From: Candidatus Thiodubiliella endoseptemdiera
GTDB lineage: Bacteria; Pseudomonadota; Gammaproteobacteria; PS1; Pseudothioglobaceae
Assembly: GCA_013416635.1 (NCBI GenBank)
Contig: JACCHT010000002.1
Location: 62,001-126,000 of the forward strand
Direction of reading: 5' to 3'
DNA: 64,000 nt
Position 1 is the first letter of the stretch; the number at the start of each line of letters is the position of its first letter. Below the pieces are notes generated by a model. It was not told the DNA's origin. It saw nothing but the letters and a program-made list of their open reading frames with translations, and made no database searches. The translations under genes and the position numbers were made by a program. This document shows, piece by piece, positions 34,006 to 46,216 of the stretch.

Positions 34006-37000
34006 ATGCCAGGACAAACAAAATACTTCATCAGCAACACCAACGGCTTCTTCGTCAACTGGTATTCCGATATCACCGGAGTTGAATCTCACGGACAAGC
34101 ATTAAAAGCATCTGGCAATAGTGGAGACGATGCCGTCTATGTAGGACAAGGCACCAAAGTCGATGCAACAGGGCTTACTTCAACAGGTGGCAATGATTCA
34201 ATTTATTTAACCGGCACTTTTAACAACTACGAACAAACACTAGATGGCAATACCTACACCTTCAAAAGAACTGTTAATATTAACGGTACTGAATACCAAG
34301 AAGAAGTCTCCTTCACAGCCTCTAATGGCGACAGGGTTTATTTTGCAAATGGTTTTGTTAAGATTGATATAACCGGCAATGACGGGCTATTAAATTTAAA
34401 TACAGGCGCTTTTAAGAGGTGAATCCACTGATATTGACAACAGTGAGTCAACTCAGGTTTGGGGATTGGTTTAAGAATCACAGACGATAAAAGTAACATC
34501 GTAAAAAATGGCGAAGACATCACCTACACCTTTACTTTTGATGAAGCAGTTACAGATTTTGATATAAATGATATTACAGTTACAGGCGGTACAAAAGGTA
34601 CTTTTACCTCTGTTAATGGTAGTGAAAGTGTCTATACTTTAGAACTAACCCCTCCTGCAAACAGTAAAGGCATAATAAGCCTTACAGTAGCCGTTGATGC
34701 TGCTACTTCTAAAGTTAACACAGCACTAAAATCAGTTGCTGCCAGCAATAATCAAAGTTTTGATACTCAAGCCCCAACTTTGATTATCAGCGATGACAAG
34801 GCTGATACTTTAACCCTTAAAACTGGCGATACAATCACCTATACCTTTACCTTTAGTGAAGCAGTAACAGGTTTTGATAAAAGTGTTATCAACATCAGCA
34901 ATGGTGCTATTAAGACAGGTACTGACTTAATTGCCAGCACAACACCTGCTGATGCAGGTAAAGTCTATACCTTGACCGTTGTACCTAGCAGTGACCTAGA
35001 TGTAGGTTCTAACTTAACAGTGTCAGTGTCTGCTAATCCTGCAATTACAGACAGTGCGGGCAATGCTTACAGCACAACAGCAGCAAATAACGAGCAAGCA
35101 ATTGACACCAAAGCCCCAGTAGCAGCACTCAGTGGCAATATGGCACCTAATGAAAACTTAACGATGACCTTTTTAGAGGCAGTTACAATAAACACAGCAG
35201 GCAGTATTGTCATTTATGATAAAGCCAACTCTGACACTCTTATTACGATTGATATAGCTAACCAAGTTAGTCTTGATAGCACTAACAAAATTATCACTAT
35301 TAATCCAGGTAGTGATTTAATAGCCAATAAGAATTACTATGTCAAAATTGATGCAGGCACTTTTAAAGATACTGCAGGTAATGATTACGAGGGTATTGAC
35401 AGCGATAGTGGTTGGGGCTTTCTGGTTTCTTCATTCACCACCACAGCACAATGGGTAGATGCAAGTGGCAACTCTGTTAGCGACAATGGCATCAATGCCA
35501 GTGAATCTAGCACACTTGCCATTCAAGGCACATTAACAAATTCTGGCGGTGCAGCAGGCGTTGTTATCAGTGCTATTACATTTAAAGCAGCCAGTGGAAC
35601 AGCCAATGACAAAGTTGTAGATACCAGTAACCTACCCACTTTTGCATCTGCCAATGGTACCGAATGGACATTAGCCAATAGTAAAATACCGGCTTTAGTC
35701 AGTGGTGAGACCTATACGATTGAGATAAATTTATCTTCAGCAGGTGGTGGCACAAGCACAGGTGGCAATACCACCCCTGTTTTAATTGACACTGCTGCCC
35801 CAATCATAACAAGCTGGGCAGTCAATTCACCAACAGATGGGCAATCAGGCTTTAAAGTAGGTGATGTTATTGAGCTAACCATGACAACCAATGAAGCACT
35901 CTCGTTAAGCAATGCTACCAGTAGCAAAGTGACCATTGGTAATAAGGAATTTACACTAGATACCGGCAAAGGTGCCGCCAAAGCAGGGGCATCAGCAGAT
36001 GAGTTAAAACAATTATTCTTTACTTACACTGTCAAAGTCGATGATAGTATCAATAAAGCAGATTTTGAGATTACCAGCAAGTGCAATTACCTTGACAGGG
36101 TAACCGATGTAGCAGTAGGTAATATAGTTGCCACCACAGGTACTTATCCTATTGAATTAGACCGTACGTTGATGGTGTTGTGCCAACTATTGGAGACATT
36201 ACACTAAACTGGGAGAAAATTTTAAACGCTATTGAAGACAACAGAATGGCACTGTAACAGTTGCACAACTGGTGTAGAAAACAATCAAGAAGTCTCACTA
36301 GTTATTAACCAAAAAACTTATACAGGCACTGTTACCAGCAATAGTGCAACCATTACTGTTGCAGCCACAGATTTACAAGCATTAACCCATGGACAAACTT
36401 ACAGCCCATAAAGTCAATATAAAAGATACTGCTGGTAACCCAGCGATAGAGAAAACAGGTAATTTTAAAGTTGATACAGTTGCACCAACTGTAACCATTA
36501 CTGACAATGAAGACGCTACAGCCGAAGCACTTTCTACCACAATCGCTTGGATAGGTGCCGATGATAACTACATTAATGATAGTGAAAAAGACGCAACCGC
36601 ACTCTCAGGCAAAGTAACTGGAATAGGTACTTTAACGATTACCAAAATTGAGTTTTTTGAAGGTAGTAATACAGTAGGCACAGCAATAACTTCAGGATTA
36701 CCAGCTGTTGCAGCTGACGGCACTGGGCACTCCATTCTGCTATGCCATCTGAATTAGCCGATGGAAAACCTACACGGCTGTAGTAACGCTTAGTGATGGC
36801 ACCAATTCAGCAATTAGCACTAGCACAGCAGTAACTTATGACACCATTAACCCAACCCCAATCACGACCAATCCATGGACTTTAAGCGATATTCCAGCAG
36901 GACAATCTGCTTTTAAGACAGGCGATGTTATCAGCCTAACACTGACAATGAGCGAGACCTTGAAACTTAATAACACCACAGGCTCTAAAGTGGTCATTGC

Positions 37001-40000
37001 AGGCAAAGACTTTGTTTTGGATAAAACTGCCTCTACAACTGCAGGTGATAAGAAACTGGTGTTTAAATATAGCGTTCAAGCTGGAGATAGCATTGCCGCT
37101 ACAGACTTTGATATTGACAATCCAACAAGCGATATTACGCTAAATAATATAACAGATGTCGCAGGTAATGCACCAGTATTTACCGCTGATAGAGTGGTGT
37201 TGACTAAGCTTGAGTATATTGAAAAAACAGGTTCGGGCAATAATCCTTTTGAGGGTATTGATGTGGGTATGTTTCTGTGCCAATCTTGGCTGATATTGAC
37301 GGCGATGGCGACCTAGATTTGGTGGTGGGTGAGAATTATGGCACCCTTAAATACTATCAAAATACAGGTACTACTTCTAACCCTGCTTATGAAGCAAAAA
37401 CTGGAGATAGCAATCCTTTTAATGGCATTGATGTGGGGAATTTTTCCGCACCAACCCTGGCCGATATTGACGGCGATGGCGACCTAGATTTGGTGGTGGG
37501 TGAGAATTATGGCACCCTTAAATACTATCAAAATACAGGCACTACTTCTAACCCTGCTTATGAAGTAAAAACTGGAGATAGCAATCCTTTTAACGGCATT
37601 GATGTGGGAAATTCTGCCTCACCAACCCTAGCCGATATTGACGGCGATGGCGACCTAGATTTGGTGGTGGGTGAGAATAATGGCACCCTTAAATACTATC
37701 AAAATACAGGCACTACTTCTAACCCTGCTTATGAAGTAAAAACTGGAGATAGCAATCCTTTTAATGGCATTGATGTGGGAGTTTTTTCTACACCAAACTT
37801 GGCTGATATTGATGGTGATGGTGATCTAGACTTGGTGGTGGGTGAGAGTAATGGCACCCTTAAATACTATCAAAATACAGGCACTACTTCTAACCCTGCT
37901 TATGAAGTAAAAACTGGAGGTAGCAATCCTTTTAATGGCATTGATGTGGGGGGTTTTTCCAAACCAACCCTAGCCGATATTGATGGCGATGGCGACCTAG
38001 ATTTGGTGGTGGGTAAGGATGATGGCACCCTTAAATACTACTACAATCAACAACCTTCTTCTGTAGATGGACAAGCCCCAACTCCAACGGCTACTAACTC
38101 ATGGACTCTAAGCGATATTCCAGCAGGACAATCTGCTTTTAAGACAGGCGATGTTATCAGCCTAACTTTGACAATGAGCGAGACCTTGAAACTTAATAAC
38201 ACCACAGGCTCTAAAGTGGTCATTGCAGGCAAAGACTTTGTTTTGGGTAAAACTGCCTCTACAACTGCAGGTGAATAAGAAACTGGTGTTTAAATATAGT
38301 GTTCAGTGGAATAGCATTGCCGCTACAGACTTTGATATTGACAATCCAACAAGCGATATTACGCTAATAATATAACAAATGTCGAGTAATGCACCAGATT
38401 TACCGCTGATAGAGTAGTGTTGACTAAGCTTGAGTATATTGAAAAAATAGGTTTGGGCAATAATCCTTTTGAGAGTATTGATGTGGGAAGTAATTCCACA
38501 CCAACCTTGGCTGATATTGACGGCGATGGTGACCTAGATTTGGTGATGGGTGAGCGTGATGGCACCCTTAAATACTATCAAAATACAGGCACTACTTCTA
38601 ACCCTGCTTATGAAGCAAAAACTGGAGATGACAATCCTTTTATGGCATTAATGTGGTATTCCTCACCAACCCTAGCCGATATTGACGGCGATGGCGACCT
38701 AGATTTGGTGGTGGGTGAGGAGAATGGCACCCTTAAATACTATCAAAATACAGGCACTACTTCTAACCCTACTTATGAAGCAAAAACTGGAGATAGCAAT
38801 CCTTTTAATGGCATTGATGCGGGAAGTGCTTCCTCACCAACCCTAGCCGATATTGACGGTGATGGTGACCTAGATTTGGTGGTGGGTGAAGGTAATGGCA
38901 CCCTTAAATACTATCAAAACACAGGCACTACTTCTAACCCTGCTTATGAAGTAAAAACTGGAGATAGTAATCCTTTTAATGGCATTGATGTGAGGAATTA
39001 TTCCACACCAACCCTAGCCGATATTGACGGCGATGGCGACCTAGATTTGGTGGTGGGTGAGCAGAATGGCACCCTTAAATACTATCAAAATACAGGCACT
39101 ACTTCTAACCCTGCTTATGAAGTAAAAACTGGAGGTAGCAATCCTTTTAATAGCATTGATGTGGGGGGTTATTCCTCACCAACCCTAGCCGATATTGACG
39201 GCGATGGCGACCTGGATTTGGTGGTGGGTAAGTATCGTTATGATGGCACCCTTAAATACTACTACAATCAACAACCTTCTTCTGTAGATGGACAAGCCCC
39301 AACTCCAACGGCTACTAACTCATGGACTCTAAGCAATATTCCAGCAGGACAATCTGCTTTTAAGGCAGGGGATGTTATCAGCCTAACACTGACAATGAGT
39401 GAGACCTTGAAACTTAATAACACCACAGGCTCTAAAGTGGTCATTGCAGGCAAAGACTTTGTTTTGGATAAAACTGCCTCTACAACTGCAGGTGATAAGA
39501 AACTGGTGTTTAAATATAGTGTTCAAGCTGGAGATAGCATTGCACTACAGACTTTGATATTGACAACCAACAAGCGATATTACGCTAAATAATATAACAG
39601 ATATGCGTAATGCACCAGTATTTACCGCTGATAGAGTAGTGTTGACTAAGGCAGTATATTGAAAAATAGGTTCGGGCAAGTAATCCTTTTGAGGGTATTG
39701 ATGTGGGAGGTTATTCCACGCCAAACTTGGCCGATATTGACGGCGATGGCAAGATGGATTTGGTGATGGGTGAGCTTATGGCACCTTAAATACTATCAAA
39801 ATACAGGCACTACTTCTAACCCTGCTTATGAAGCAAAAACTGGAGGTAGCAATCCTTTAATGGCATTAAGTGCGGGTTTTCCCAAACCAACCTAAGCGAT
39901 GATGGCGATGGTGATCTAGGATTTGGTAGTGGGTGAGAATGATGGCACCTTAAATACTATCAAAACACAGGCACTACTTCAACCTGCTTATGAAGCAAAA

Positions 40001-42456
40001 CTGGAATGACAATCCTTTAATGGCATAATGCGGATATTCTTCCTCACCAATCCTAGTCGATATTGACGGCGATGGCGACCTAGATTTGGTGGTGGGTAGG
40101 AGAATGGCACCCTTAAATACTATCAAAATACAGGCACTACTTCTAACCCTGCTTATGAAGTAAAACTGGAGATAGAATCCTTTAATGGCATTGATGTGGG
40201 AATCTTTCCGCACCAACCTAACCGATATTGACGGCGATGGCGCCATGATTTGGTGATGGGTGGGCTTATGGCACCTTAAATACTATCAAAATACGGCACT
40301 ACTTCTAACCCTGCTTATGAAGCAAAACTGGAAATGACAATCCTTTTAATGGCATTGATGTGGGATATTCTTCCAAACCAACCTAGCCGATATTGACGGC
40401 GATGGTGATTTAGATTTGGTAGTGGTGAGGCTAATGGCACCTTAAATATTACTACAATCAACAACCTTCTTCTGTAGATGGACAAGCCCCAACTCCAACG
40501 GCTACTAACTCATGGACTCTAAGCAATATTCAGCAGGACAATCTGCTTTTAAGGCAGGGATATTATCAGCCCAACACTGACAATGAGTGAGACCTTGAAA
40601 CTTAATAACACCACAGGCTCTAAAGTGGTCATTGCAGGCAAAGACTTTGTTTTGGATAAAACCGCCTCTACAACTGCAGGTGATAAGAAACTGGTGTTTA
40701 AATATAGCGTTCAAATTGGAGATAGCATTGCTACAGACTTGATATTGACAATCCAACAAGCGATATTACGCTAAATAATATAACAGATGTCGCAGGTAAT
40801 GCACCAGTATTTACCGCTGATAGAGTAGTGTTGACTAAGCTTGAGTATATTGAAAAAATAGGTTCGGGCAATAATCCTTTTGAGGGTATTGATGTGAGGG
40901 ATGTTTCTGCGCCAACCCTGGCTGATATTGATGGCGATGGTGATTTAGATTTGGTAGTGGGTGAGGGTGCTGGCACCCTTAAATACTATCAAAATACAGG
41001 CACTACTTCTAACCCTACTTATGAAGCAAAAACTGGAGATGACAATCCTTTTAATGGCATTGATGTGGGAAATTATTCCTCACCAACCCTAGCCGATATT
41101 GACGGCGATGGCGACCTAGATTTGGTGGTGGGTAAGAATGATGGCACCCTTAAATACTATCAAAATACAGGCACTACTTCTAACCCTGCTTATGAAGCAA
41201 AAACTGGAGGTGACAATCCTTTTAATGGCATTGATGTGGGATATTCTTCCTCACCAACCCTAGCCGATATTGACGGTGATGGCGACCTAGATTTGGTGAT
41301 GGGTAAGAATGATGGCACCCTTAAATACTATCAAAATACAGGCACTACTTCTAACCCTGCTTATGAAGCAAAAACTGGAGATGACAATCCTTTTAATGGC
41401 ATTGATGCGGGATACTCTTCCTCACCAACCCTAGCCGATATTGACGGCGATGGCGACCTAGATTTGGTGGTGGGTGAGAATTATGGCACCCTTAAATACT
41501 ATCAAAACACAGGCACTACTTCTAACCCTGCTTATGAAGCAAAAACTGGAGACAGCAATCCTTTTGATGGCATTGATGTGGGGATTTATTCCGCACCAAC
41601 CCTAGCCGATATTGACGGCGATGGCGACCTAGATTTGGTGATAGGTGAGATTGACGGCACCCTTAAATATTACTACAATCAACAACCTTCTTCTGTAGAT
41701 GGACAAGTTCCAACCTTTACAGAAAAAACCAGCGATACCAATGTCTTAGGCGAGCCTTCAAATCTAGTAATTGAGTTTTCTGAAAACATCAAAACAAATG
41801 GTGGCACTGTTGAAATCTGGAATAGCGCAGAAAAAGTTGCAACTATTAGCATTACTAATGCTAATATTAGCGACACAACACTCACTCTTAACCCAAGTAG
41901 TTTAACTTCAGGTGTTTATTACATCAAAATGGCATCAGGCGTTATAACTGACACCTCGGGTAATGACTTTACAGGTATTGATAATACCTCAGGTAAAACT
42001 TGGGCATTTGCATATAATTTTTATATCGGCACCGATAACGCCGATACTATAACGGGTAGTGCAGGTGACGATACTATAAATGGTGGTGCAGGCAACGATA
42101 CTATAAATGGCGGTGCAGGCAGTGATATTTTTGTTTATGCAAATACAGATAATGGCGAAGACACCATAACTGGCTTCATATTTGGTGCTGGTGGCGATAA
42201 ATTAGATTTAAAAGATTTTATTACTGCTAGTGGCAACCAAGCGACACTTTTTGCTAATATTGATAAATATATTACAGTGTCAGATACTGGCACTGCAGGT
42301 AGTGCCAAACTAACGATTGATGCTGATGGCACGGTTACAGATGATGTTGCTGATTTGGTTATCAATCTACAAGGGGTTTCTGGTATTGGTGGCTCCTCTA
42401 CTCCTGACACAGTTGCATTAGGGCACTTTATAACTGATAATCTTATTCTTGTATAA
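34006..42456 (+). CDS. Giant RTX / Ig-like / VCBS-repeat secreted protein, gene C (frame broken)
   Basis: Third paralogue, about 2,800 codons, oriented opposite to A and B. The main open segments are 34006-34422, 34459-36207, 36389-36757, 36948-37316, 37277-38278, 38417-39592 and 40828-42456. The Ig-like N-terminal region follows gene B, but near 36520 it jumps from the TDNEDATA module straight to [14 protein letters not shown], a deletion relative to B. Four five-blade VCBS blocks follow, then an Ig-like module, RTX nonapeptides and the common tail. It has the most frame breaks per kilobase of the three, clustered at 38.27-38.4 and 39.5-40.8 kb. The same secreted or surface role is inferred. 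Confidence 0.82.
37200..41690 (+). repeat. Four five-blade VCBS-type blocks of gene C (20 blades)
   Basis: Blocks lie at about 37.2-38.06, 38.42-39.28, 39.66-40.46 and 40.83-41.7 kb. Variable residues (site 1 / site 2). C1: YVSV/ENY, NFSA/ENY, NSAS/ENN, VFST/ESN, GFSK/KDD. C2: SNST/ERD, WYSS/EEN, SASS/EGN, NYST/EQN, GYSS/KYRYD (an expanded loop). C3 is too damaged to read in full. C4: DVSA/EGA, NYSS/KND, YSSS/KND, YSSS/ENY, IYSA/EID. Confidence 0.88.
39540..40480 (+). other. Dense indel cluster in gene C (third block)
   Basis: All five blades can be recognised, but small deletions and insertions occur every few tens of bases (for example ctaggatttgg and gcgccatgattt). A smaller cluster lies at 38270-38400. 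As in genes A and B, the damage is confined to repeated sequence. Confidence 0.75.
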
Positions 42457-42476
42457 AGTAAGACACCTATAAAAAC

Positions 42477-42510
42477 AAAAACCCGCCTTATTAAAGCAGG
42501 TTTTTTTATG
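42477..42510 (+). terminator. Terminator of gene C (one stem mismatch)
   Basis: Inverted counterpart of the hairpin after gene A, followed by a run of seven T. One stem base has changed (gcagg for gcggg), which weakens pairing. The surrounding 90 bp equal the 3' flank of gene A in reverse. Confidence 0.65.
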
Positions 42511-42550
42511 GAAAAATATCAACCAAAAATTTAAAAATTTAAAAACTTGA

Positions 42551-42613
42551 ACCTAGAGGAATAAGTAAATTATGTATAATAATAATCAGTTATAACACCC
42601 AAAGGACAACCCC
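42551..42613 (+). promoter_or_regulatory. Fourth copy of the giant-gene promoter
   Basis: It matches 33946-34005 nearly base for base: TATAAT at 42575-42580 and AAAGGA before ATG 42614. It lies directly after the terminator of gene C and drives only the truncated locus. Confidence 0.65.
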
Positions 42614-42969
42614 ATGCCAGGACAAACAAAATACTTCATCAGCAACACCAACGGCTTCTTTGTCAACTGGTATTCCGATATCACCGGACTTGAATCTCAC
42701 GGACAAGCATTAAAACTATTGATTTAACGGGTTCAGGCGACAACAATTTAAAACTCAATCTTGATGATTTGTTAGATATTTCTAGCGAAACTAATATCCT
42801 TAAAGTTGTTGGTAACTCAGGAGATAATGTTACGACTGGGTTGGGATTTAGTGATTCAATTGCAAATGAAACTGTTGACGGTGTTACTTATGATGTTTAT
42901 ACCCATAGTGATGCTAATACAGATGCCAAGGTGGCACTTTGGATAGAGCAAGGTTTGACAGTGCTTTAA
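42614..42969 (+). pseudogene. Deleted giant-gene paralogue: common N-terminus joined to a different secreted-protein tail
   Basis: The first 35 codons ([16 protein letters not shown]...HGQALK) equal genes A-C. After gcattaaaa the sequence switches to TIDLTGSGDNNLKLNLDDLLDI...VDGVTYDVYTHSD...KVALWIEQGLTVL, a tail of the kind found at the C-terminus of large Ca-dependent type I secreted proteins. As read, the frame stops after KLLI at 42724. One extra A at the junction would fuse the parts in frame into a protein of about 118 residues. It therefore looks like a large internal deletion of a fourth gene that carried a different C-terminus. Confidence 0.7.
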
Positions 42970-42994: not shown

Positions 42995-43028
42995 TAAAAC
43001 CCAATGCTTTTGTATTGGGTTTTTTGTT
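42995..43028 (+). terminator. Rho-independent terminator after the truncated paralogue
   Basis: Stem acccaat/attgggt with a loop of about 8 bases, followed by six T and then G. It lies 30 bases past the stop codon. Confidence 0.8.
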
Positions 43029-43121
43029 TCAAGCACAAAATACATAATTAATAGTTATAAATGAGCAAGAAATGAATTGGCTAAGTTAACAAAATTATTA
43101 AAAGGTAATTATGAGTAAAAA

Positions 43122-44478
43122 GAGAGCGTAAATTAAACTGTGTAAATCCGCCTTTTCACTCTTAACTATTTCTCGTATTTTTCCATAATCTCATCAAAAA
43201 ATATACATAATTGAGGGTAAATCTCACCCCAGTTTCTAACTCTAGTTCTTTGCCATTTTTCCTGTATTTGTTGTGTTGCCAAGTATACCATCTTAAGTGC
43301 TGACCCTTGCGTTGGGAACGAACCTTTGGATTTAGTTTTCTTCTTGATAATCGCATTTAATGATTCTATTGGGTTAGTTGTGTATATCAATGTTCTAACG
43401 CTTTGCGGATACTTAAAAAATGTTGATAGCTCACTCCAATGGTTATGCCATGATTTGGCAAAATTAGGGTATTTTTTATCCCAAATATGTTTAAATTCAT
43501 CTAGTGATAATAATGCCTGCTCTTCGTTTAAAGCCGTGTAAACAGCTTTTAAATCTTTAGCAACTGCCTTTCTGTCTTTCCAGGACACAAATCTTAGCGA
43601 TGAGCGGATTTGGTGAACAATGCAGCGCTGAACCTCAGCTTTTGGGTAAACAGCCTCTATTGCTTTATTAAAGCCATTTAATCCATCAATAGCAAAGATT
43701 AAAACATCGTTAATACCACGCTTTTTAATATCGTTTAACACTGTGAGCCAGTACTTAGATGTTTCGTTTTCACCTATCCAAAATCCAATAATCTCTTTTT
43801 TACCTTCAAGACTTACACCCAGCATAATATACACAGCAATGTTTTTAACCACAGAATCAATCTTGATTTTAAGTACGGTAGCATCCATAAATATGATGGG
43901 ATAAATCGCCTCTAAAGGACGATGCTGCCACTCATCTACCTTAACCATAATCTTCTCGGTAATGTTGGATATGGTGGTGGTAGATAGCTCATAACCATAC
44001 AAATCATCAAGATGATTTTGAATGTCTCTAACGCTCATGCCTTTGGTATAAAGAGACAAGATTAAATCCTCACTGCCGTCTAAAATGACTTCACGCTTTT
44101 TGACTAGTTGTGGCTCAAAACTGGCTTGCCTATCTTTGGGGATGGCGACATCTATATTGCCATACTTGGATTTTAAAGTCTTTTGTTATGCCCATTGCGA
44201 TAATTACGACCGTCGTTATCTTTTAGTGATAACTGATTTTTTGATAGCCAAGATGGCTTGATAGTTCTTCTTCGCTAGCAGTTTGAATAACCTCTCGCAT
44301 TATGTTTTAAATTCATCTACGATGTTATCAAGGGAGGTAAATTCCCCTGTTTGGATTTGTCTTTTTAGTTCGTTGTGGTTGATTAAACTCATTTGTGTTT
44401 CTCCTTGTATTTTTAATGCTTTTGATTTTATAGGATCAAAAGCTTTTTAAGGATTTACACAGTTTAATTTACGCTCTC
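43122..44478 (-). mobile_element. IS256-family insertion sequence, 1,357 bp
   Basis: Perfect 28-bp inverted repeats (43122-43149 and 44451-44478) beginning gagagcgtaaattaaactg enclose a Mutator-type transposase gene on the minus strand. No 8-9 bp duplication is seen (agtaaaaa and gtttgtgg), so the element has probably taken part in a deletion. It truncates the RhuM-like gene on its right. On its left, a short frame (MSKKRA, 43111) runs straight into the repeat. Confidence 0.85.
43166..44392 (-). pseudogene. IS256-family transposase, N-terminus frame-broken
   Basis: The catalytic part from MSLYTKGMSVRDIQNHL (44059) to EIMEKYEK is intact: 297 residues with the DDE-type motifs FMDATVLKIK, FAIDGLNGF and YTTNPIESLNAIIKK. 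The natural start is ATG at 44392 (MSLINHNELKRQIQTGEF). Between 44300 and 44170 at least three one-base losses break the frame (true reading IMREVIQTASEEEL, YQKNQL, NYRNGHNKKTLKSKYGNIDV). The full-length equivalent is about 409 residues. It may be active if the breaks are sequence errors. Confidence 0.8.
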
Positions 44479-44990
44479 GTTTGTGGGGTAATTTTTGACT
44501 GATAATCAAAACCACTTTGTTGTAAAAACCAAATAAAACTAAAAGCCCCTGATTGACACGATAGCCAACCGCTAGAATAATATCCAATGAGTAATAAGTA
44601 ACAGGCTTATCAGAATTTGCAATATGCATTTTTTGCATATTGCTTTTTTCATCAACTTCCCTATCTGCCAATATATTTTTAATATGTCTTGAAATAACCG
44701 ATTGGTCTTTGTCAAAAATATTAACAGAGACCTTTGCATAAATATGAATAATCATCAAAACGCCATCTTTCATCAAATTACAAACTTTTTAAAAACACCC
44801 TTAGCCCTGCTAGGAGTGGATTTAAAAAATTTCCAATTTAATAAAATCTGTCATTTTGCTAATCATCCCTATTTATGCAAAGGTCTCTAACAATATCTTT
44901 TTGCGATGCCCAAATAGTCTCAGTAGTTGAATCTGACTTTAATTCAATCGCTCCGTTTTCTGCTTGGTAAATTGTTAGATTTTTAGTCAT
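44479..44990 (-). pseudogene. RhuM-family gene split by a miniature element and cut by IS256
   Basis: It starts at ATG 44990 (MTKNLTIYQAENGAIELKS...TIWASQKDIV), is interrupted at 44888-44726 by the element, and resumes NIFDKDQSVISRHIKNILADREVDEKS...YYSLDIILAVGYRVN. Removing the element with one copy of its taaca duplication joins DIV to NIF in frame. The sequence then diverges just before the IS256 repeat, so the C-terminal half is gone. RhuM-like proteins often sit with Fic or restriction genes; a Fic gene lies directly upstream on the same strand. Confidence 0.7.
44726..44888 (+). repeat. Miniature element inserted in the RhuM-like gene
   Basis: Full copy whose core (gagacc to ggtctc, 161 bp) is flanked by a perfect 5-bp duplication, taaca. 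This copy and those at 52803, 53832 and 61933 define the element boundaries and duplication size. Confidence 0.92.
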
Positions 44991-46053: not shown

Positions 46054-46216
46054 AGAGACCTTTGCATAAATAGGGATGATTAGCAAAATGACAGATTTTA
46101 TTAAATTGGAAATTTTTTAAATCCACTCCTAGCAGGGCTAAGGGTGTTTTTAAAAAGTTTGTAATTTGATGAAAGATGGCGTTTTGATGATTATTCATAT
46201 TTATGCAAAGGTCTCT
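46054..46216 (-). repeat. Miniature element next to the panB stop codon
   Basis: Full copy. The flanks tttta and tttaa match at four of five positions. Its right end abuts the panB stop codon (TAA, 46217-46219), so panB keeps its natural C-terminus but loses its original downstream region. Confidence 0.9.

What the first reader, a model, noticed from the sequence alone, without database searches (positions are those of the whole stretch)
42614..42969. Fourth locus: giant-gene N-terminus fused to a different secretion tail
The promoter and 35 codons equal those of genes A-C, then jump to a tail of another large secreted-protein type (TIDLTGSGDNN...). The fusion is out of frame by one base in an A4 tract. 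It records a fourth gene with a different C-terminus that lost its middle, or a cassette end available for exchange.
Basis: partly seen in the sequence, partly recalled or inferred. Interest (0 to 1): 0.5.

Follow-up and report, generated by a model that had tools for sequence, protein, structure and literature searches.

The report
Scar of a deleted giant gene
A short, out-of-frame leftover in a bacterium related to mussel-gill symbionts joins the start of one giant secreted-protein gene to the end of another kind; it is most likely the scar of a deletion, and not a working gene or an exchange cassette.

Summary
At 42614 the 5' end of the giant-gene family (34 codons, not 35) is joined at 42708-42715 to the last 86 codons of another C-terminal domain, one base out of frame; translation would stop after 37 residues. 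At least 31 such 5' modules exist in this genome, not four; 28 continue into the family's own N-terminal domain. The A4 tract is normal for the family (23 of 31 copies), so the frame offset belongs to the joint and no local indel is indicated. The tail occurs once in this genome. Five same-genus genomes carry it 72 times, always in open frames of 202 aa or more. The joint cuts its domain in two, removing the RTX part. Two other modules are cut short similarly (C1:208475 at codon 32, C1:1170260 at codon 18); for the latter a matching tail end lies elsewhere in the genome. A paralogous locus (C1:998640) has the same flanking sequences without the minigene. Best explanation: a scar of illegitimate recombination, most simply the loss of the middle of a second giant gene standing in tandem. 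A cassette is not supported: the breakpoints vary and this one lies inside a domain. Ordinary genome decay; low interest.

The parts
40828..42456 (+). Last open frame (542 aa) of the upstream giant gene of the family: FG-GAP repeats, RTX repeats and a type I secretion C-terminal domain. The gene starts at 34006 and is broken into several frames.
42457..42613 (+). Intergenic stretch, with TATAAT 39 bases before the start. The stretch 42502-42715 matches C9:343187-343397 at 97%.
42614..42727 (+). Short ORF: 34 codons shared with the family, then 3 codons and a stop (37 residues).
42708..42715 (+). Joint region CATTAAAA. The family side and the tail side use it in different reading frames.
42709..42969 (+). 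Tail: last 86 codons plus stop of a C-terminal domain, in another frame than the start; the only copy of this tail in the genome.
42996..43023 (+). Terminator-like hairpin after the tail.
43050..43121 (+). Right flank, 96% identical over 75 columns to C1:998801-998875, where the minigene is absent.
43119..44478 (-). Insertion element with a Mutator-type (IS256-like) transposase whose frame is broken; 98.7% identical over 1360 columns to C1:44182-45532. It lies downstream and not at the joint.

Best explanation
The locus is a remnant and not a gene. The 5' end of a giant FG-GAP/Ig-type secreted-protein gene was joined to the 3' end of a gene with another C-terminal domain by illegitimate recombination at a short imperfect match around CATTAAAA. 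Most simply this was one large internal deletion in a second gene standing in tandem behind the 34006-42456 gene. The two partners use the short match in different reading frames, so the product is out of frame by construction and only a 37-residue peptide could be made. Shown: the two halves, the sharp joint, the family-normal A tract, the single-copy tail, the half domain, two other truncated modules, and the paralogous locus without the minigene. Inferred: that a single internal deletion did it (about 0.6) and not an ectopic join between two loci (about 0.3), and that the peptide has no function.
For: Start module 94.9-98.8% identical to its window paralogues up to 42715 and unlike them after it. 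A tract as in 23 of 31 copies. Tail found once in the genome by DNA and by protein, but 72 times in 5 same-genus genomes, always in long frames. The tail starts at residue 90 of a 175-residue domain, after the RTX part, between two modelled strands. At the residue after the first shared isoleucine the window has K where 16 of 16 relatives have E, as expected if that base came from the family side. Two other modules are cut short: C1:1170260 at codon 18, with a 96% identical end piece at C1:153007-153118, and C1:208475 at codon 32. C1:998640 has the same left gene end (97.9% over 780) and right flank with no minigene.
Against: No intact gene with both ends was found, so an internal deletion is not proved. 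The right parent is unknown; relatives match the 8-base joint at only 4 to 7 of 8 (read), and for C1:1170260 the exact overlap is only CTG, which 6% of random joints reach. For C1:208475 the donors read locally diverge just before the joint. The tail frame carries no stop over its 86 codons and keeps the conserved residues except the E noted above, so decay, if any, is recent. Parts of this assembly are of poor quality, and raw reads were not available.
Confidence: 0.8

Rival explanations
1. Ectopic join: the start module and the tail come from two different loci and were joined by recombination between them, so no single gene ever had both ends. This is a variant of the best explanation and not exclusive of its main claim.
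For: No gene with this N-terminal domain and this tail was found in this genome or in 11 other genus genomes. The end piece shared with C1:1170260 lies at another locus, C1:153007.
Against: Tandem order favours loss inside one gene: 15 of 31 modules have an RTX-tail match within about 0.5 kb upstream on the same strand. The same flanks occur at C1:998640 without the minigene.
Confidence: 0.3
2. The fusion is a real short secreted protein and the frame offset is a base-calling error in the A tract.
For: The offset is a single base beside a run of A, and other stretches of this assembly look rich in indels. The tail frame itself is open over 86 codons.
Against: Four A's is the family norm (23 of 31). 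The tail is half a domain without its RTX part. All 73 tail matches outside this genome lie in frames of 202 aa or more.
Confidence: 0.08
3. Assembly chimera: the two halves are not neighbours in the organism.
For: The joint lies at the end of a repeated module, and some stretches of the assembly have almost no long ORFs.
Against: Contigs of 0.69 and 1.33 Mb through many long repeats imply reads much longer than the shared stretch of roughly 215 bases (inference). Two similarly truncated modules exist, and the right flank occurs at a paralogous locus.
Confidence: 0.05
4. A silent cassette end kept as a donor for exchange of gene ends in a shuffling system.
For: At least 31 near-identical start modules, more than one tail type, and several start-to-end joints in one genome.
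Against: Breakpoints at codons 18, 32, 34 and about 82, with no constant boundary. The tail here is cut inside a domain and has no second copy in the genome.
Confidence: 0.05

Closest known systems
Truncated pseudogenes formed by illegitimate (short-homology) recombination in bacterial genomes (recalled as a general kind; no paper was read for it)
   Same: A start and an end joined at a short imperfect match, middle missing, frame lost.
   Different: It sits in an unusually large family of near-identical starts: at least 31.
Giant FG-GAP / bacterial Ig / RTX proteins with a type I secretion C-terminus
   Same: The start module is that of such genes, and the tail type ends or interrupts such proteins in relatives.
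   Different: Only 34 codons and half of a C-terminal domain are left, in different frames.
Toxin-related genes of Bathymodiolus symbionts (RTX, MARTX, YD repeat; PMC4612132, passages seen)
   Same: Same genus of symbionts, inferred from matching contig numbers and hits; large RTX-bearing genes in many copies.
   Different: The word FG-GAP does not occur in the main text of that paper, and this start module was found in none of the 11 other genus genomes searched. Whether these proteins are toxins was not tested.

Membership tests
Giant FG-GAP/Ig gene family of this genome | Shared 5' module (first 34 codons) | tested here: met
Giant FG-GAP/Ig gene family of this genome | Continues into the family's N-terminal domain after codon 34 | tested here: not met
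   28 of 31 copies continue, this one does not
Giant FG-GAP/Ig gene family of this genome | FG-GAP or Ig repeat body | tested here: not met
   the tail follows the joint directly and matches no Pfam model
RTX-type C-terminal domain of the tail family | Conserved residues of the second half of the domain | tested here: met
   except E at the second shared residue (K here)
RTX-type C-terminal domain of the tail family | RTX repeats in the first half of the domain | tested here: not met
   absent, the window tail starts at residue 90
Working gene | One open frame from start to tail | tested here: not met
Exchange cassette | Constant boundary or recombination site | tested here: not met
   breaks at codons 18, 32, 34 and about 82
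Deletion pseudogene | Intact parent gene with both ends in a relative | tested here: not met
   none found; strains of the same species were not available

The most novel reading that the evidence does not exclude
At least 31 near-identical start modules, more than one tail type and recurrent start-to-end joints are the products of ongoing recombination that reshuffles giant surface proteins in a bivalve-symbiont lineage. The minigenes would then be dead ends, or spare ends, of that process.
Probability: 0.07. Interest if true: 0.6.

Novelty: new member of a known kind. Interest (0 to 1): 0.2.

Why it matters
It shows that an amplified family of giant secreted-protein genes in a bivalve-symbiont genus is also losing members through start-to-end joints, and that counting start modules overcounts working genes. 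By itself it changes no view of how these genes work.

Tried and rejected
Chance similarity: rejected. A-tract indel as the cause of the offset: not indicated. An insertion element at the joint: none there; the transposase element lies about 400 bases downstream. A second copy of the tail in the genome: none by DNA or by protein. The joint itself in other genus genomes: 0 of 11 with up to 3 mismatches. The N-terminal domain elsewhere: 0 of 11 other genus genomes; in genome contigs, 69 stretches matched a pattern and none was a relative. The start-module DNA in 57 relatives gave only fragments of 26 to about 37 bases in two genomes. Ig-like pieces related to the body of a relative's tail gene exist in this genome, but they do not carry the tail. 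NCBIfam gave nothing for the tail.

Papers. PMC4612132, PMC9993606 and PMC10999363 were seen in passages only; the others in search listings with starts of abstracts. Bathymodiolus with symbiont and FG-GAP: no paper in the library. Four of the five terms gene fusion, internal deletion, microhomology, adhesin and endosymbiont: none. A search for MITE-like elements in these symbionts asked for 3 of 5 terms: 243 papers, 8 listed, none of the 8 titles on a Bathymodiolus symbiont, which is not a proof of absence. Host and species of the genome were not established.

Full report
What is there. At 42614-42969 the start of the giant-gene family is followed by the end of another gene. The first 30 bases occur exactly at 17767-, 29567-, 34006+ and 42614+. 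The shared stretch runs to 42715 and is 94.9-98.8% identical to the other three. After that the sequence is unlike the other members (median identity 98% over codons 1-34, 33-34% after, against 24 copies with readable sequence; 6 indel-rich copies were left out of that count). Frame 1 reads 37 residues and stops. The tail is open in the neighbouring frame to a stop at 42967-42969, followed by a terminator-like hairpin at 42996-43023.

Family. The window lies in a 2.37-Mb genome of 24 contigs, 87% complete. I found 31 copies of the start module on contigs C1 and C9, a lower bound because the first look was capped. Of these, 28 continue past codon 34 into a 139-residue N-terminal domain, several with frame breaks. 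One of the 28, at 17767-, changes body after about codon 82. Three leave the family earlier: this locus at codon 34, C1:208475 at 32 and C1:1170260 at 18. Members in the window carry FG-GAP or bacterial Ig repeats, and some carry RTX repeats; the gene upstream of this locus ends in a type I secretion domain. The N-terminal domain was found in 0 of 11 other genus genomes and, by a close-relative search, in none of genome contigs.

The tail. It occurs once in this genome by DNA and by protein. Of 58 genomes searched, 7 including this one have it. Outside this genome there are 73 matches: 72 in 5 same-genus genomes and 1 in a genome of the same class, all in open frames of 202 to 3476 aa. Of 19 matches in relatives that I read out, 9 end at or soon after the tail and 10 continue, mostly into FG-GAP-like sequence. 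It is therefore a domain used both inside and at the end of large proteins, and 'secretion tail' is only partly apt. Named carriers include symbionts of Bathymodiolus azoricus, B. brooksi and B. sp. 5 South; more distant relatives occur in other phyla (best 80 of 167 kept). One long carrier is a 2600-aa Ig/cadherin-type protein in a gammaproteobacterial MAG. Aligned with 16 others, the window tail begins at residue 90 of the 175-residue domain. The part it lacks holds the stretches that match RTX proteins of known structure (profile positions 3-82). The model, mean pLDDT 76, puts the cut between two strands; Foldseek found no convincing PDB match.

The joint. Family copies read CAAGCATTAAAAGCATCTGG, four tails of relative G011 read CAAGACATTGAAATCATTGATTTAAC, and the window reads CAAGCATTAAAACTATTGATTTAAC. 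The two sides use the short match in different reading frames, so a joint there is out of frame by construction. At the residue after the first shared isoleucine 16 of 16 relatives have E and the window has K, as expected if that base came from the family side. The A tract has four A's in 23 of 31 copies, three in 3, five in 1 and was not scorable in 4. Random joints between such sequences reach 7 of 8 matching bases with a frequency of 0.004. Relatives match the joint at 4 to 7 of 8 and the true right parent is unknown, so short-homology joining is suggested and not shown.

Other truncated modules. C1:1170260(-) keeps 18 codons, then runs into an end piece that is 96% identical over 112 bases to C1:153007-153118, whose frame ends in SDITALSDFSASNLILS-stop. 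The parents share CTG exactly at the joint and 9 of 11 bases loosely; 6% of random joints share three or more bases. That end piece is itself a fragment near copies of a palindromic element. C1:208475(-) keeps 32 codons and runs in frame into an FG-GAP piece, 55 residues in all; the donors read locally are 81-90% identical and diverge just before the joint. The three would make peptides of 37, 18 and 55 residues with only the start in common.

Neighbourhood. Upstream stands a gene with an RTX tail in the same direction; 15 of 31 modules have such a tail match within about 0.5 kb upstream on the same strand (counted from its rows; some tail matches are weak or frame-broken). Downstream, 43050-43121 matches C1:998801-998875 at 96%. 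There an RTX-tail gene 97.9% identical over 780 bases is followed by a 162-base palindromic element and then this flank, with no minigene. The flank leads into a 95-residue reading frame (it looks like a helix-turn-helix antitoxin, recalled and not tested). In the window a Mutator-type insertion element stands at that place. This fits a second gene lost in part here and wholly there, but the direction of change was not tested.

Reliability. Several fetched stretches have almost no ORFs of 150 aa or more (L031 8%, L011 5%, L034 5%, L035 0%), and several module copies carry scattered indels, so frame breaks in this assembly need care. The window stands at 59-97% per 8 kb. No reads were available.

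Conclusion. The finding is real but ordinary: a scar of illegitimate recombination in an amplified giant-gene family. The 'lost its middle' reading is supported though not proved, the 'cassette' reading is not.

Noticed in passing
window 44726-44888 and 46054-46216; C1:917490-917651; many other places: A palindromic element of about 162 bases with ends GAGACCTTTGCATAAATA: 47 distinct copies in the sequence I held of this genome, about 295 end matches per strand in the whole genome with up to 1 mismatch, and end matches in 11 of 12 genus genomes. It is MITE-like.
   Followed up: partly
start modules, for example C1:917670, C9:95982, C1:935940: 12 of 31 start modules have a copy of this element within 60 bases upstream of the matched start. 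At C1:917490-917651 it stands at the -10-like site between two copies of TATGT, while the 42614 locus has the empty site (read by eye). It may change the expression of the giant genes.
   Followed up: partly
G000 C1:957000-976900, C1:357501-363999, C9:321700-332800, C21:3000-14000: Stretches with almost no long ORFs (0-8% in ORFs of 150 aa or more), as in poorly polished long-read sequence; part of the family's frame breaks may be sequencing errors.
   Followed up: no
G011 contig 1, about 49500-119300: A same-genus genome of 2.8 Mb carries 47 copies of the tail domain, about 20 of them in one stretch of genes with frames of about 1340-2060 aa: an amplified array of giant genes.
   Followed up: no
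window 34006-42456: The upstream giant gene is split into several frames in the order of an intact gene; decay or sequencing error was not resolved.
   Followed up: no
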